This document shows positions 30,336 to 63,775 of a stretch of DNA of 64,000 bases, one piece after another. Position numbers and translations under genes: made by a program. Position 1 is the stretch's first letter, and each line of letters starts with the position of its first letter. This stretch comes from Ignavibacterium sp. (GTDB taxonomy: Bacteria; Bacteroidota; Ignavibacteria; Ignavibacteriales; Ignavibacteriaceae), in assembly GCA_032027145.1 (NCBI GenBank), contig JAVSMP010000001.1, positions 1,702,903 to 1,766,902 of the forward strand. The letters run 5' to 3'. The notes beneath the pieces are model-generated. The model was not told the origin of the DNA. It did no database searches and worked only from the letters and a program-made list of their open reading frames with translations.

Positions 30336-30833
30336 TTATTTCATATTCACAAATTGAGTAGGGAAATCCAGTTCTGAATCTTTTATTAATTTTATAACCA
30401 CCTGTAAATCATCAATCTTTGGTGCAGTTACTCTGATTTGTTCATCTTGTATTTGTGCGTTAACCTTTAACTTTGATTCCTTAATCATTTTTGTAATGAT
30501 TTTTGCATTATCCTTTGAAATTCCGCTTTGCAGACTAATTGTCTGTTTTAGTCTTCCTCCGGCAGCAGCTTCCGGTTCATTAAACTTTAAGGCTTTAATA
30601 GAAATTCCTCTTCGAATAAATTTTGTTTCAAGAATATCAATTGATGCTTTGCGCGAGTAATCATCTTTGGTATTGAGTGAGAGTAATTTATCTTTTTTAT
30701 TTAACTCAATCTGAGTTTTAGAATCTTTCAAATCGTAACGCTGATGTATTTCTTTTAATGCCTGATTAACAGCATTATCTACTTCCTGAAAATCAATTTC
30801 AGATACAATATCGAAAGAATGATTTTGTGCCAT
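30336..30833 (-). CDS. yajQ: YajQ family nucleotide-binding protein
   Basis: This 165-residue protein is of normal length for YajQ: it starts with HSFDIVSEIDFQEVDNAVNQ, has a central KASIDILETKFIRRGI segment and ends in QVVIKLIKDSELDFPTQFVN. The two ferredoxin-like halves are recognisable. Some YajQ proteins bind cyclic di-GMP and regulate transcription; whether this one does is unknown. It is the last gene of a minus-strand set read from the GIY-YIG array through tRNA-Pro, and lies 21 bases after the tRNA. Confidence 0.92.
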   Translation of the reverse strand: MAQNHSFDIVSEIDFQEVDNAVNQALKEIHQRYDLKDSKTQIELNKKDKLLSLNTKDDYSRKASIDILETKFIRRGISIKALKFNEPEAAAGGRLKQTISLQSGISKDNAKIITKMIKESKLKVNAQIQDEQIRVTAPKIDDLQVVIKLIKDSELDFPTQFVNMK

Positions 30834-30854
30834 CTTAAACCCATTATTTTTAAG

Positions 30855-30929
30855 TCGGGGTGATAGGATTCGAACCTACGACCTCTTCGTCCCGAACGAA
30901 GCGCGCTAGCCGGACTGCGCTACACCCCG
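30855..30929 (-). tRNA. tRNA-Pro (anticodon CGG)
   Basis: On the minus strand, acceptor CGGGGTG pairs with CACCCCG and is followed by discriminator A. The D arm is GCGC...GCGC, the anticodon stem CTTCG/CGAAG encloses TTCGGGA (anticodon CGG, reading CCG), and the T arm contains GTAGGTTCGAATCCTAT. All stems pair perfectly. Its 5' end lies only 4 bases after the stop codon of the nearest GIY-YIG gene, so the tRNA is probably cut out of a longer transcript by RNase P. Confidence 0.93.
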
Positions 30930-30933
30930 AATA

Positions 30934-31191
30934 CTATTTGTAAAAGAAAAATTCTGCGTATTCGGTTCTAATAAATTTTTTATTTTTAAGTTTTTTGAGT
31001 TTTAACTCAAATCTATTCGCATCTAAGTTGTTTTCAAAACCTCTTAAAAAAATCAACTCCCAGGATCCTTTAGCTTTTGTTGATTTATTTTGTCCTGAAT
31101 TATGTTCAACTAATCTTCTTTCAATATCTCTAGTATGTCCTATATACCAGCGTTGATTAGCAGATGATTCAATTATATAAGTATAAAACAT
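30934..31191 (-). CDS. Mini GIY-YIG nuclease, copy 1 (next to intact tRNA-Pro)
   Basis: This 85-residue protein consists only of a GIY-YIG domain: YTYII (the GIY strand), WYIGHT (YIG), the catalytic arginine in DIERRLVEHN and the metal-binding glutamate region FELKLKKLKNKK. The ATG at 31191 has AAGG eight bases upstream, so it is preferred to a GTG two codons earlier. Such single-domain nucleases (UvrC N-terminus/YhbQ-like) nick or cut DNA. Its TAG stop lies 4 bases from the tRNA-Pro 5' end. It is identical in protein sequence to copies 2 and 3. Confidence 0.85.
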   Translation of the reverse strand: MFYTYIIESSANQRWYIGHTRDIERRLVEHNSGQNKSTKAKGSWELIFLRGFENNLDANRFELKLKKLKNKKFIRTEYAEFFFYK

Positions 31192-31195
31192 TTCC

Positions 31196-31246
31196 ACGAC
31201 CTTCCCGACCTGTCGGGACGCGCTAGCCGGACTGCGCTACACCCCG
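31196..31246 (-). pseudogene. Truncated tRNA-Pro-like fragment upstream of copy 1
   Basis: On the minus strand it reads as tRNA-Pro from nucleotide 1 through the D arm (28 bases identical to the intact gene). The palindrome TCCCGACAGGTCGGGA then stands in place of the anticodon arm, followed by AGGTCGT as in the variable loop. It then runs into the nuclease start codon. The T arm and acceptor 3' half are absent, so it cannot be a working tRNA. Confidence 0.75.
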
Positions 31247-31250
31247 AATA

Positions 31251-31508
31251 CTATTTGTAAAAGAAAAATTCTGCGTATTCGGTTCTAATAAATTTTTTAT
31301 TTTTAAGTTTTTTGAGTTTTAACTCAAATCTATTCGCATCTAAGTTGTTTTCAAAACCTCTTAAAAAAATCAACTCCCAGGATCCTTTAGCTTTTGTTGA
31401 TTTATTTTGTCCTGAATTATGTTCAACTAATCTTCTTTCAATATCTCTAGTATGTCCTATATACCAGCGTTGATTAGCAGATGATTCAATTATATAAGTA
31501 TAAAACAT
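31251..31508 (-). CDS. Mini GIY-YIG nuclease, copy 2
   Basis: Identical protein to copy 1 (85 residues from the ATG at 31508), in the middle unit of the array, with the same upstream AAGG and the same truncated tRNA-Pro fragment before it. The catalytic residues (GIY, YIG, Arg, Glu) are all kept. The lack of any decay between copies means recent amplification, homogenisation or an assembly duplication. Confidence 0.83.
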   Translation of the reverse strand: MFYTYIIESSANQRWYIGHTRDIERRLVEHNSGQNKSTKAKGSWELIFLRGFENNLDANRFELKLKKLKNKKFIRTEYAEFFFYK

Positions 31509-31512
31509 TTCC

Positions 31513-31563
31513 ACGACCTTCCCGACCTGTCGGGACGCGCTAGCCGGACTGCGCTACACCCCG
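31513..31563 (-). pseudogene. Truncated tRNA-Pro-like fragment upstream of copy 2
   Basis: Same structure as the fragment at 31196-31246: a 28-base tRNA-Pro 5' half, the palindrome, then AGGTCGT leading into the nuclease gene. Confidence 0.75.
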
Positions 31564-31567
31564 AATA

Positions 31568-31825
31568 CTATTTGTAAAAGAAAAATTCTGCGTATTCGGT
31601 TCTAATAAATTTTTTATTTTTAAGTTTTTTGAGTTTTAACTCAAATCTATTCGCATCTAAGTTGTTTTCAAAACCTCTTAAAAAAATCAACTCCCAGGAT
31701 CCTTTAGCTTTTGTTGATTTATTTTGTCCTGAATTATGTTCAACTAATCTTCTTTCAATATCTCTAGTATGTCCTATATACCAGCGTTGATTAGCAGATG
31801 ATTCAATTATATAAGTATAAAACAT
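31568..31825 (-). CDS. Mini GIY-YIG nuclease, copy 3 (promoter-proximal)
   Basis: Identical protein to copies 1 and 2. On the minus strand this is the first gene of the array, behind a candidate TATATTTG promoter element at 31902-31909. If that promoter is used, copies 3, 2 and 1 and then tRNA-Pro and yajQ would lie in one transcript. Confidence 0.83.
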   Translation of the reverse strand: MFYTYIIESSANQRWYIGHTRDIERRLVEHNSGQNKSTKAKGSWELIFLRGFENNLDANRFELKLKKLKNKKFIRTEYAEFFFYK

Positions 31826-31829
31826 TTCC

Positions 31830-31880
31830 ACGACCTTCCCGACCTGTCGGGACGCGCTAGCCGGACTGCGCTACACCCCC
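31830..31880 (-). pseudogene. Truncated tRNA-Pro-like fragment, outermost copy
   Basis: Same structure as the other two fragments, but its first base is G instead of C (GGGGGTG). That would break the 1-72 pair of a tRNA-Pro. It is preceded by a run of eight T, unlike the inner copies, which are preceded by the tail of a nuclease gene. It therefore marks the outer edge of the array. Confidence 0.7.
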
Positions 31881-31901
31881 AAAAAAAAGATATTAGCTGA
31901 A

Positions 31902-31909
31902 CAAATATA
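31902..31909 (-). promoter_or_regulatory. Candidate -7 element driving the GIY-YIG array and tRNA-Pro
   Basis: Read on the minus strand, TATATTTG matches TAnnTTTG perfectly and lies about 22 bases before the outermost tRNA fragment. No good -33 box was found. It is likely the ancestral tRNA-Pro promoter, now almost 1 kb from the intact tRNA. Confidence 0.45.
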
Positions 31910-62182: not shown

Positions 62183-63775
62183 ATGAAATACAAGTTACAT
62201 TTGTTCATTATTCTCTCTTCATTTTTCCTTTGGAGTTCTTTATATGCTCAAACTCCATTGATCAATGAGTTGTTCTCACGAGGAACTGAAATCGAACCAG
62301 ACTGGATTGAAATCTATAATCCTACTTCATCATCAATAGATATTACTGGTTATAAGATTTATGATAGCGGCGGAAAGAACGGAACAAAACCCAAAAAAGA
62401 ATTTCCTTCCGGATCAGTTATTCCTGCTAATGGATTTCTTGTAATAATTACAGATGATACAGATCCAAGTGGTTTTGGTTTATCAAGCGGTGGTGAGTGG
62501 GTTTGGTTTGAAAATACAAGCGGAACAGTAATAGATAGTGTTAATATGGCTGCTGTTACCGATCCCGAAGCATCTTATGGCAGACTTCCTGATGGGAGTG
62601 CAAACTGGCAAATATTAATTCCAAGAACAAGAGGTACGTCTAATACAATAATTGTAGTAACACCTGTCATTAACGAATTGTTCTCACGCGGAACTGAAAT
62701 CGAACCAGACTGGATTGAAATTTATAACCCTTCTTCTTTAGCAATGGACATTAGTGGTTATAAGATTTATGATAGCGGCGGAAAGAACGGAACAAAACCC
62801 AAAAAAGAATTTCCTTCCGGATCAGTTATTCCTGCTAATGGATTTCTTGTAATAATTACAGATGATACAGATCCAAGTGGTTTTGGTTTATCAAGCGGTG
62901 GTGAGTGGGTTTGGTTTGAAAATACAAGTGGAACAGTAATAGATAGTGTTAATATGGCTGCTGTTACTGATCCCGAAGCATCTTATGGCAGACTTCCTGA
63001 TGGGAGTGCAAACTGGCAGATATTAATTCCAAGAACAAGAGGTTATTCTAATGTTCCTGTTACTTCTCCAGTAGTGATTAATGAATTATTCTCACGTGGA
63101 ACCGATACAGAACCAGATTGGATTGAAATCTATAATCCCTCTTCATCATCAATGGATATTACAGGTTATAAGATTTATGATAGCGGTGGAAAGAACGGAA
63201 CAAAACCGAAAAAAGAATTTCCTTCCGGATCAGTTATTCCTGCTAATGGATTTCTTGTAATAATTACAGATGATACAGATCCAAGTGGTTTTGGTTTATC
63301 AAGCGGTGGTGAGTGGGTTTGGTTTGAAAATGCAAGCGGAACAGTAATAGATAGTGTTAATATGGCTGCTGTTACTGATACATCAGCATCCTATGGAAGG
63401 CTTCCAGATGGAAGTGCAAACTGGCAGATATTAATTCCAAGAACAAGAGGTTACTCAAATTCAACCACGGATGTCGAAGATGAAATTAATCCGGTTTCAG
63501 GATTTCAATTATCTCAGAACTATCCCAATCCATTCAATCCAGCAACAAAAATAAATTTCAGCTTAACTGTTGCTTCTAAAGTTAAGATTACAGTGTATAA
63601 TTTACTTGGTCAGATTATAAATCAACTTGTTAACGGCAATTATACAGCAGGGAATCATACTGTTAGTTTTAATGCAGATGGATTAAATAGTGGAGTGTAT
63701 TTTTACAAAATTGAGGCTGTTGGAATTGATGGACAGAATTTTGTTTCTACCAAAAAAATGATTCTAACCAAATAA
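62183..63775 (+). CDS. Secreted protein with three lamin-tail repeats and a T9SS-type C-terminal domain
   Basis: This 530-residue protein has a signal peptide (about 1-22, ending LYAQ) and three lamin-tail repeats of 136 residues each (about 26-161, 162-297, 298-420), almost identical to each other. The C-terminal domain has GFQLSQNYPNPFNPATKI, VYNLLGQII, GNHTVSFNADGLNSG and VYFYKIEA. This last domain is the FlgD-like/type IX secretion sorting type found on many exported proteins of Ignavibacteria and neighbours. It is probably cell-surface or released. It is a paralogue of the lipoprotein at 60405; no enzyme domain is present. Confidence 0.85.
   Translation: MKYKLHLFIILSSFFLWSSLYAQTPLINELFSRGTEIEPDWIEIYNPTSSSIDITGYKIYDSGGKNGTKPKKEFPSGSVIPANGFLVIITDDTDPSGFGLSSGGEWVWFENTSGTVIDSVNMAAVTDPEASYGRLPDGSANWQILIPRTRGTSNTIIVVTPVINELFSRGTEIEPDWIEIYNPSSLAMDISGYKIYDSGGKNGTKPKKEFPSGSVIPANGFLVIITDDTDPSGFGLSSGGEWVWFENTSGTVIDSVNMAAVTDPEASYGRLPDGSANWQILIPRTRGYSNVPVTSPVVINELFSRGTDTEPDWIEIYNPSSSSMDITGYKIYDSGGKNGTKPKKEFPSGSVIPANGFLVIITDDTDPSGFGLSSGGEWVWFENASGTVIDSVNMAAVTDTSASYGRLPDGSANWQILIPRTRGYSNSTTDVEDEINPVSGFQLSQNYPNPFNPATKINFSLTVASKVKITVYNLLGQIINQLVNGNYTAGNHTVSFNADGLNSGVYFYKIEAVGIDGQNFVSTKKMILTK
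62261..63452 (+). repeat. Three tandem 408-bp coding repeats (lamin-tail units)
   Basis: Units begin at 62261, 62669 and 63077, exactly 408 bp (136 codons) apart, the last one shorter. Most of each unit is the same at the DNA level; long stretches (for example AAGAACGGAACAAAACC and what follows) differ by only single bases. The start of each unit (the IYNP segment) and the end vary more. Confidence 0.85.

What the first reader, a model, noticed from the sequence alone, without database searches (positions are those of the whole stretch)
30855..31909. Mini GIY-YIG nuclease element that targets tRNA-Pro and has piled up as a tandem array
Seen: three identical 317-bp units, each bounded by a 28-bp copy of the tRNA-Pro 5' half and each encoding an 85-residue stand-alone GIY-YIG nuclease with intact motifs. 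The last unit ends 4 bases before the intact tRNA. The outermost tRNA fragment keeps what looks like the original 5' flank and a perfect TAnnTTTG promoter box. Inference: a one-gene element inserts within the tRNA gene and rebuilds the functional tRNA on its downstream side. It thereby stays transcribed from the tRNA promoter and does not kill its host. Repeated insertion at the rebuilt site, or crossing-over between the 28-mers, would produce the array. Integrating elements normally use the 3' end of tRNA genes and a recombinase; here the 5' half is duplicated and the only candidate enzyme is a tiny nuclease. This is the best candidate for an undescribed system in the window.
Basis: partly seen in the sequence, partly recalled or inferred. 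Interest (0 to 1): 0.88.

Follow-up and report, generated by a model that had tools for sequence, protein, structure and literature searches.

The report
Tiny nuclease genes nested in tRNA genes
A family of tiny genes for probable DNA-cutting enzymes lives pressed against tRNA genes, and sometimes against or inside other essential RNA genes, in many Bacteroidota; most carry a broken copy of the local tRNA next to a working one, many pile up in tandem, and they look like selfish elements that rebuild the gene they break.

Summary
The window holds three identical 317-bp units on the 5' side of tRNA-Pro(CGG), each with a 28-nt tRNA 5' half, a perfect palindrome where the anticodon arm should be, and an 85-aa GIY-YIG gene. 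Of 115 nuclease loci from 33 related genomes, 81 lie within 300 bp of a tRNA, all on its strand (chance about 1%). In 140 testable linked loci, 103 carry the matching tRNA half beyond the nuclease; antisense 0; other tRNAs 1.3% of comparisons. The nuclease tree follows tRNA identity (19 changes against 58 shuffled). Four loci sit at tmRNA genes; two lie inside RNase P RNA genes. The two closest relatives with this locus have clean empty sites and another tRNA-Pro allele, so insertion apparently also replaced the tRNA. Two related genomes without the nuclease almost lack partial tRNAs. Best reading: homing-type selfish elements whose homology arms are the two ends of the RNA gene; arrays form by recombination between halves. 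Cutting and homing are inferred, not shown. Ten searches of an open-access library listed no description. Closest known: phage SegB.

The parts
30854..30929 (-). intact tRNA-Pro(CGG); allele unlike that of the two closest relatives
   Evidence: ARAGORN; 82.9% identical to G002's tRNA-Pro(cgg), the outlier of 40 isoacceptor classes
30934..31191 (-). 85-aa GIY-YIG nuclease ORF, copy nearest the tRNA (ends 4 nt before it)
31192..31202 (-). tRNA-like remnant (variable loop and start of T arm, by eye) between palindrome and start codon
   Evidence: read
31203..31218 (.). perfect palindrome replacing the anticodon arm of the partial tRNA
31219..31246 (-). 28-nt copy of the tRNA-Pro 5' half
31251..31508 (-). 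identical nuclease ORF, second copy
31520..31535 (.). palindrome, second copy
31536..31563 (-). 28-nt tRNA-Pro 5' half, second copy
31568..31825 (-). identical nuclease ORF, outermost copy
31837..31852 (.). palindrome, third copy
31853..31880 (-). outermost tRNA-Pro 5' half (27 of 28), joined to the flank that in the empty relative precedes the whole tRNA
31902..31909 (-). promoter-like box TATATTTG, at the same place before tRNA-Pro in the empty relatives
30336..30833 (-). DUF520 (YajQ-like) gene, downstream flank used to find empty sites
   Evidence: Pfam PF04461
32084..32635 (+). phosphoribosyltransferase-domain gene (PyrR-like), other flank
   Evidence: Pfam PF00156

Best explanation
This is one member of a widespread family of one-gene, homing-type selfish elements of Bacteroidota that nest in essential structured-RNA genes, mainly tRNA genes. 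Each element is a minimal GIY-YIG nuclease on the tRNA's strand, with an intact tRNA on one side and usually a partial copy of the same tRNA on the other, so tRNA halves bracket the ORF. Inferred mechanism: the nuclease breaks a matching tRNA gene in an empty chromosome; the break is repaired from the element-bearing copy, with the intact tRNA on one side and the partial tRNA on the other as homology arms. The recipient gains the nuclease, keeps one working tRNA (sometimes the donor's allele) and is left with a broken half. The gene then rides on the tRNA's promoter. In the partial half a stem-loop is replaced by a palindrome, perhaps removing a cut site or keeping the RNA folded. Repeated cutting, or crossing-over between halves, makes tandem arrays and ORF-less arrays. 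Shown: association, strand, matching halves, target-following clades, empty sites, a tRNA allele difference at the filled site, arrays, palindromes, purifying selection. Inferred: cutting, homing, the role of the palindromes, selfishness.
For: Association: 81 of 115 loci within 300 bp of a tRNA, 81 of 81 same strand; phylum survey 59 of 70, all same strand, 51 of 61 outside the order. Of the other 27, 18 have a tRNA within 300 bp, 17 tRNA-Asn(gtt) and one unassigned; the 9 without lie within 433 bp of a contig end. Homology arms: the expected tRNA half (12 nt or more exact) beyond the nuclease in 103 of 140; antisense 0; tRNAs of other amino acids 225 of 16,754 comparisons. Specificity: 19 changes of tRNA amino acid on the nuclease tree against mean 58.3, minimum 51 of 1000 shuffles. 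Empty site: G002 and G005 have one tRNA-Pro, no nuclease, no second half; flanks align at 93% and 91% to G002. G005 lies outside G000+G002 in yajQ (86.5 against 92.7%), so gain in the window's lineage is the simplest reading. Allele: tRNA-Pro 82.9% identical to G002's, next lowest of 40 classes 95.4%, yet 98.7% identical to another genus's; G003's filled Leu-taa is 80% identical to G000's. Promoter. Constraint: dN/dS mostly 0.05-0.35 where measurable; Y16, R26, H30, E62 invariant in 40 chosen sequences. Dependence: partial tRNAs beside 14 of 84 tRNAs in two nuclease-bearing genomes, 1 of 62 in two lacking it (Fisher 0.002).
Against: No cleavage, homing or mobility was observed. The protein has only the catalytic domain, so how it would find one tRNA gene is unexplained. 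At most filled loci compared in the genus the tRNA is unchanged, so replacement is not general. G024 carries a relative (with an in-frame stop) beside the other tRNA-Pro allele type, and G021 an intact one beside a similar type, so allele type does not simply mark resistance. The intact tRNA beside the nuclease should itself be a target. 37 of 140 far sides lack a 12-nt half; 35 of 140 hold 12 nt of the other half too. A TAGATTTG inside each window ORF means a promoter nearer the tRNA is not excluded. The palindromes are not accounted for by homing alone. The nuclease-free control is two genomes. Gain in the window's lineage rests on a one-gene comparison.
Confidence: 0.62

Rival explanations
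1. Passive recombination: a nuclease gene once landed beside tRNA genes and is inherited; partial tRNAs and arrays arise by ordinary slippage and unequal crossing-over, without the nuclease.
For: Array periods equal one tRNA-half-to-half distance, as crossing-over between direct repeats would give. ORF-less partial copies exist at Asn, Asp, Ala and Pro-tgg in the same genome. Copy number differs between close relatives.
Against: Clades follow tRNA identity across genera. A recent gain with a changed tRNA allele is the simplest reading at the window locus. Two related genomes without the nuclease have 1 and 0 of 31 tRNAs with partial copies. Linked loci at 25 isoacceptors, tmRNA and RNase P RNA need many separate landings.
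Confidence: 0.15
2. A host function: the nuclease and pseudo-tRNAs were adopted by the cell, for example to change tRNA dosage, process tRNA precursors or act as decoys against tRNA-cutting defences or toxins.
For: Purifying selection. Same-strand position suggests co-transcription. In phage T6, SegB amplifies tRNA-Tyr with segB against a tRNA-cutting defence (PMC13096335, passages read). A few loci (L179, L242, L245) do hold extra full-length or nearly full-length tRNA copies.
Against: What is amplified in the window and most arrays is the partial, palindrome-bearing tRNA, not a working one. Presence is patchy (absent at the same tRNA in the two closest relatives with the locus), and copies with in-frame stops or truncation occur.
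Confidence: 0.13
3. An unseen recombinase or hairpin-processing enzyme acting in trans moves the units, and the nuclease is cargo or only resolves them.
For: Palindromes mark most partial-copy junctions (stem of 5 bp or more in 44 of 47 anticodon-arm, 19 of 22 D-loop and 26 of 44 T-loop junctions; base-shuffled means 6.1, 5.4, 7.6). ORF-less units with the same palindrome class exist. In two genomes the ORF lies in the loop of a perfect 19-24 bp inverted repeat inside RNase P RNA.
Against: The window unit holds no second protein gene. The nuclease itself follows the target by clade. Its nearest solved relatives are UPF0213 and SLX1, the latter titled as processing branched DNA, so it could act on hairpins itself.
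Confidence: 0.1

Closest known systems
SegB, free-standing GIY-YIG homing endonuclease of T-even phages (PMC13096335; passages and section 10 read)
   Same: Free-standing GIY-YIG gene enriched beside tRNA genes; its activity and recombination genes were needed for tandem repeats of a tRNA + nuclease unit.
   Different: Phage-borne; the paper reports no favoured tRNA isotypes. Here: chromosomal; the window protein has no match in the phage and plasmid collections and no confirmed relative in viral contigs (Asn-clade alignment likewise); mostly 70-99 aa; clades tied to tRNA identity; partial tRNA plus palindrome as part of the unit.
UPF0213 / SLX1 branch of the GIY-YIG superfamily (PDB 1zg2, 1ywl; SLX1 6seh, 7cq2)
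   Same: Best sequence and fold matches.
   Different: The UPF0213 entries are named hypothetical; SLX1 works with SLX4 on branched DNA by the entry titles. Nothing about tRNA genes is said in the matches.
Genomic islands and ICEs integrated in tRNA genes
   Same: Leave one complete and one partial tRNA copy around the insert (PMC9897764, passages read).
   Different: The inserts in those passages are about 9-23 kb, and such elements use a recombinase (recalled). Here the insert is about 0.3 kb with one nuclease, duplicates either half, and has palindromes in place of arms.
Group I introns with homing endonucleases in tRNA genes (PMC3984707, search listing only)
   Same: Homing endonuclease genes in bacterial tRNA genes.
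   Different: No intron family was matched in the 42 loci searched with Rfam, and the intact tRNA is uninterrupted.
Rickettsia palindromic elements (recalled, not searched)
   Same: Mobile palindromes, recalled to occur in structured RNA genes.
   Different: No nuclease gene associated, as far as recalled.

Membership tests
GIY-YIG nuclease superfamily | catalytic domain with GIY/YIG, Arg and Glu residues | tested here: met
   Pfam PF01541 E 3e-19; Y16, R26, H30, E62 invariant in 40 chosen sequences, Y5 in 90% or more; model pLDDT 90.5 nearest UPF0213 and SLX1
Free-standing homing endonuclease gene (SegB type) | cuts the element-free allele and spreads to it by recombination | not testable with these tools
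   only indirect: empty sites and a changed tRNA allele
Free-standing homing endonuclease gene (SegB type) | GIY-YIG domain plus a separate DNA-binding part (recalled) | tested here: not met
   124 of 136 ORFs are 70-99 aa, little more than the domain; NCBIfam group I intron endonuclease model matched by 4 of 5 proteins only far below its cut-off
Free-standing homing endonuclease gene (SegB type) | lineages tied to a target | tested here: met
   19 changes of tRNA amino acid on the tree against 58.3 shuffled
tRNA-integrating genomic island | integrase in the element | tested here: not met
   the only plausible gene per 317-bp unit is the nuclease
tRNA-integrating genomic island | one intact and one partial tRNA copy at the two ends | tested here: met
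   window; 103 of 140 linked loci
Group I intron | self-splicing intron fold interrupting the gene | tested here: not met
   no Rfam intron match at gathering score in 42 loci; the window itself was not scanned with Rfam; intact tRNA-Pro uninterrupted

The most novel reading that the evidence does not exclude
A natural cleave-and-rescue drive in bacteria: a minimal nuclease cuts an essential RNA gene (tRNA, tmRNA, RNase P RNA) and the element delivers its own functional copy, so cells that are cut survive only with the element's version. The palindromes mask the cut site in the homology arms, or splint the RNA fold when the ORF sits inside the RNA, as it does in the only RNase P RNA gene found in one single-contig genome. 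This would be a class of integrase-free mobile element specialised on structured RNA genes across Bacteroidota.
Probability: 0.3. Interest if true: 0.95.

Novelty: new variant of a known kind. Interest (0 to 1): 0.86.

Why it matters
tRNA genes are classic landing sites of integrating DNA, normally thought of with recombinases. A family of genes of about 250 bp that may do this with only a nuclease, seen here at 25 tRNA isoacceptors, tmRNA and RNase P RNA in many Bacteroidota, would be among the smallest mobile elements, would explain partial tRNAs and tandem arrays that end contigs, and would give a testable natural parallel to cleave-and-rescue gene drives. It also makes a question testable: can a bare catalytic GIY-YIG domain be gene-specific, for example by reading DNA folded like the RNA it encodes?

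Tried and rejected
Assembly error: unlikely as a general cause. The window's three copies are identical and could in principle be miscounted, but other arrays hold diverged copies (L046 dS up to 0.25, L048 0.21, L049 0.15), and arrays occur in four single-contig genomes (G000, G002, G006, G024).

Genome-wide dispersed palindrome that landed by chance: TCCCGACNNGTCGGGA occurs in this genome only in the three units. The wider class TCCCGA-N0-9-TCGGGA occurs 36 times (reversed control 1); by my reading of coordinates 24 of 36 lie beside tRNA genes in partial-tRNA units (Asn 11, Asp 5, Pro-tgg 4, Pro-cgg 3, Ala 1) and one inside RNase P RNA; the other 11 were not examined.

All short GIY-YIG genes sit by tRNAs: rejected. 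Eleven loci of two separate clades in the same genomes (L063, L072, L075, L088, L105, L113, L114, L117, L124, L143, L147) have no tRNA in the stretch held and no Rfam match (some lie near contig ends). Of 30 weak hits, mainly Patescibacteria and other phyla, 2 have a tRNA within 300 bp, one of them (L265) a Flammeovirgaceae record.

Carriage by phage or plasmid: no match to the window's protein in phages or plasmids at E 1e-5 and no confirmed relative in viral contigs.

A control mended on re-check: one search compared each far side with five random tRNAs of other amino acids and reported averages (mean longest match 6.8 nt). Counted singly against all such tRNAs, 225 of 16,754 comparisons (1.3%) reach 12 nt and 39 of 140 loci have at least one, as related tRNAs share arms; the matching tRNA reaches it in 103 of 140.

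Tree resolution is limited (81 columns for 107 rows, 39 of 104 inner branches starred), so the label test carries the weight. RNA folding of the partial tRNA was no more stable than shuffles. Four loci of the phylum survey (L189, L204, L213, L220) and some loci of the first survey remain without an identified RNA partner.

Literature: ten searches of the held open-access library (listings seen) showed no description of bacterial GIY-YIG genes with partial tRNAs; subscription journals are not covered. A recalled report of single-strand-specific GIY-YIG nucleases in Neisseria (Ssn) was not found and is not used as evidence.
Full report
OBSERVATION. The window's tRNA-Pro(cgg) lies at 30854-30929 on the - strand. 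On its 5' side three identical units of 317 bp fill 30902-31879. Read along the tRNA strand each unit is: 28 nt of the tRNA 5' half; a 16-nt perfect palindrome in place of the anticodon arm; a few more tRNA-like bases; an ATG and an 85-aa GIY-YIG ORF. The intact tRNA follows the last ORF after 4 nt. The palindrome class TCCCGACNNGTCGGGA occurs in this genome only in these three units.

SAME GENOME. Pfam GIY-YIG finds a second triple array (period 323) on the 5' side of tRNA-Ser(tga), and a degenerate nuclease after four ORF-less 124-bp units on the 3' side of tRNA-Val(tac). Four further tRNAs (Asn, Asp, Ala, Pro-tgg) carry ORF-less partial copies, in tandem at three of them: 5' halves at Asn, Asp and Ala, 3' halves at Pro-tgg. 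In all, 7 of 42 distinct tRNAs have a same-strand partial copy (12 nt or more) within 1.2 kb, none antisense; G002 of the same genus likewise 7 of 42, with different copy numbers; two relatives in which one search found no nuclease (G030, G025) have 1 of 31 and 0 of 31 (30 of their 39 tRNA loci each were held). Fisher p = 0.002 for 14 of 84 against 1 of 62.

RELATIVES. The window protein matches in 36 of 41 related genomes. I fetched 111 loci for the listed places, from 32 genomes besides the window's (the listing was truncated). With the own-genome loci and the window, 115 loci hold a nuclease; 71 lie within 100 bp and 81 within 300 bp of a tRNA, all 81 on the same strand. With 43 tRNAs in 3.67 Mb about 1% would be expected by chance. 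Of the rest, four are beside tmRNA on the same strand, several at contig ends carry tRNA fragments, and 11 belong to two separate clades not linked to RNA genes, an internal control.

PHYLUM. A profile of 32 members matches in 96 of 148 genomes; this includes whatever other short GIY-YIG genes the profile reaches, so it is an upper figure for the linked family. Of 70 loci examined (some repeat the first survey), 59 have a tRNA within 300 bp, 59 of 59 same strand; outside the window's order 51 of 61. Of the remaining 11, two lie at RNase P RNA genes, two have a tRNA 428 and 646 bp away, three are within 430 bp of a contig end, four are unexplained.

RNASE P. In L215 and L199 the ORF is inside the RNase P RNA gene. 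The 5' part (ending TAATCGC) is 320 and 323 nt upstream of the conserved GGAGGAAAGTCCGGAC; complementary 8-nt and 9-nt stretches at the two ends of the gene bridge the insert; and the ORF sits in the loop of a perfect inverted repeat of 24 bp (L215) or 19 bp (L199). In uninterrupted relatives (L473, L474) a TTATCGCC is followed after roughly 15-20 nt, a short hairpin by eye, by GGAGGAAAG. These are the only RNase P RNA matches in those two genomes; G098 is a single contig. The Rfam model aligns its 5' end to the ORF's tail with several mismatched pairs, which fits an interrupted 5' end. That the repeat extends helix P3 is my reading, and the end-to-end complement alone would be weak evidence.

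PREDICTION TEST. An Asn-clade alignment found 65 loci in named genomes. Of all 33, 22 have a tRNA within 300 bp: 21 tRNA-Asn(gtt), one unassigned, one of the 22 on the opposite strand. Without the six: 18 of 27, 17 Asn and one unassigned. All loci without a tRNA lie within 433 bp of a contig end. The cut at 46% was drawn after seeing the list; below it 2 of 30 have a tRNA within 300 bp.

TARGET SPECIFICITY. On a tree of 107 nucleases, the tRNA amino-acid label (83 labelled rows, 14 states including tmRNA) needs 19 changes; 1000 shuffles give mean 58.3, minimum 51. Isoacceptor: 29 against 64.8 (minimum 58). Side of the tRNA: 14 against 18.9 (minimum 15), so side is more labile. Some states interleave, for example tmRNA with Ala, and Lys with Val and Met.

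HOMOLOGY ARMS. In 148 non-redundant linked loci (147 same strand; 113 with the tRNA first, 35 with it last; 40 with two or more copies), 140 have enough far side to test. The expected tRNA half (3' half after the nuclease if the tRNA comes first, 5' half before it otherwise) is present with 12 nt or more exact in 103; the other half in 35; antisense in 0. Against all held tRNAs of other amino acids 225 of 16,754 comparisons reach 12 nt. Thus in most loci the ORF is bracketed by matching tRNA sequence on both sides, as a repair template for a broken tRNA gene would need.

PALINDROMES. Between retained blocks of the partial tRNAs the native arm is mostly replaced by a GC-rich hairpin: stem of 5 bp or more in 44 of 47 anticodon-arm junctions (shuffled mean 6.1), 19 of 22 D-loop (5.4) and 26 of 44 T-loop junctions (7.6). 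The position tends to be shared within a tRNA class (by eye). What they do is open: removing the cut site in the arm, or keeping a transcript folded.

EMPTY SITE AND ALLELE. Upstream of yajQ, G002 (98% yajQ protein identity) and G005 (95%) have one tRNA-Pro(cgg), no nuclease and no second half (G001, G010 and G015 gave no yajQ match). The window's flank beyond the array is nearly identical to G002's up to the tRNA's first base; flanking stretches align at 93.1% and 90.7%. The tRNA itself is 82.9% identical to G002's, while the other 39 isoacceptor classes score 95.4% or more (gap-penalised), 30 of them 100%. It is 98.7% identical to the tRNA-Pro of G007, in another genus. G005 branches outside G000+G002 by yajQ (86.5% to both; 92.7% between them), so an insertion that also swapped the tRNA in the window's lineage is the simplest history. 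Elsewhere in the genus, the filled Leu-taa locus of G003 is also diverged (80%), and G003's and G004's tRNA-Pro are of the window's type, but Cys, Glu, Ser, Ala and Met tRNAs at filled loci are 98.6-100% identical to G000's (a second tRNA-Met call in L104, at 88%, is a partial copy by my reading), so replacement is an occasional outcome. G003 at the Pro locus and G002 at the Ser locus carry ORF-less remnants.

EXPRESSION. In tRNA-last loci such as the window's, the tRNA therefore probably depends on read-through from the old promoter across the nuclease copies. Against a firm claim: a TAGATTTG lies inside each window ORF, about 80 nt before the next tRNA sequence.

THE ENZYME. Catalytic residues are invariant in the sequences aligned (intact ORFs chosen). 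Where synonymous change is measurable, pairs show dN/dS mostly of 0.05-0.35; array copies reach dS 0.25; several pairs with few changes give 0.47-0.53, the L074 copies differ by two nonsynonymous changes alone, and many between-locus pairs are saturated. The predicted fold (pLDDT 90.5) is nearest to UPF0213 and SLX1, then the I-TevI catalytic domain. There is no separate DNA-binding domain.

MECHANISM. The pattern is what a homing endonuclease specific for a tRNA gene would leave if its homology arms were the two ends of that gene. Self-cutting and repair from a sister copy, or plain recombination between halves, would add units with the observed period. Searches for phage, plasmid or viral carriage were negative. 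The demonstrated parallel is phage SegB, where nuclease activity and recombination genes were needed for tandem amplification of tRNA-Tyr plus segB (PMC13096335; passages and section 10 read).

LIMITS. No biochemical or population data exist here. Specificity without a DNA-binding domain, survival of the adjacent intact tRNA, and the palindromes are unexplained. The surveys cover the window's phylum; other phyla were only touched by weak hits.

Noticed in passing
L215 (about 1951-2604) and L199: A nuclease ORF of the same family sits inside the only RNase P RNA gene matched in each of two genomes (G098, G088), in the loop of a perfect 24-bp or 19-bp inverted repeat.
   Followed up: partly
L077, L095, L100, L155: Same-family nucleases directly downstream of tmRNA on the same strand; in L100 pieces of the tmRNA 3' end recur after the ORF.
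   Followed up: partly
L334, L329, L330 (window genome, tRNA-Asn, -Asp, -Pro-tgg): ORF-less tandem arrays of partial tRNA plus palindrome (units of about 67, 90 and 114 bp), with copy numbers that differ from the sister genome G002.
   Followed up: partly
L189: Eight nuclease units in tandem (period 364) with no intact tRNA found nearby; the first follows what reads like a tRNA 3' half.
   Followed up: partly
G000:C1:1066344-1066359: A TCCCGA...TCGGGA palindrome of the class found in partial tRNAs lies inside this genome's own RNase P RNA match (1066192-1066608), which is longer than in two other members of the phylum.
   Followed up: no
window 62259-63460: A tandem repeat of about 408 bp, 2.9 copies, 91% matches, perhaps a repeated protein domain.
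   Followed up: no
L179, L242, L245: Nuclease loci with extra full-length or nearly full-length copies of the tRNA beside partial ones.
   Followed up: no
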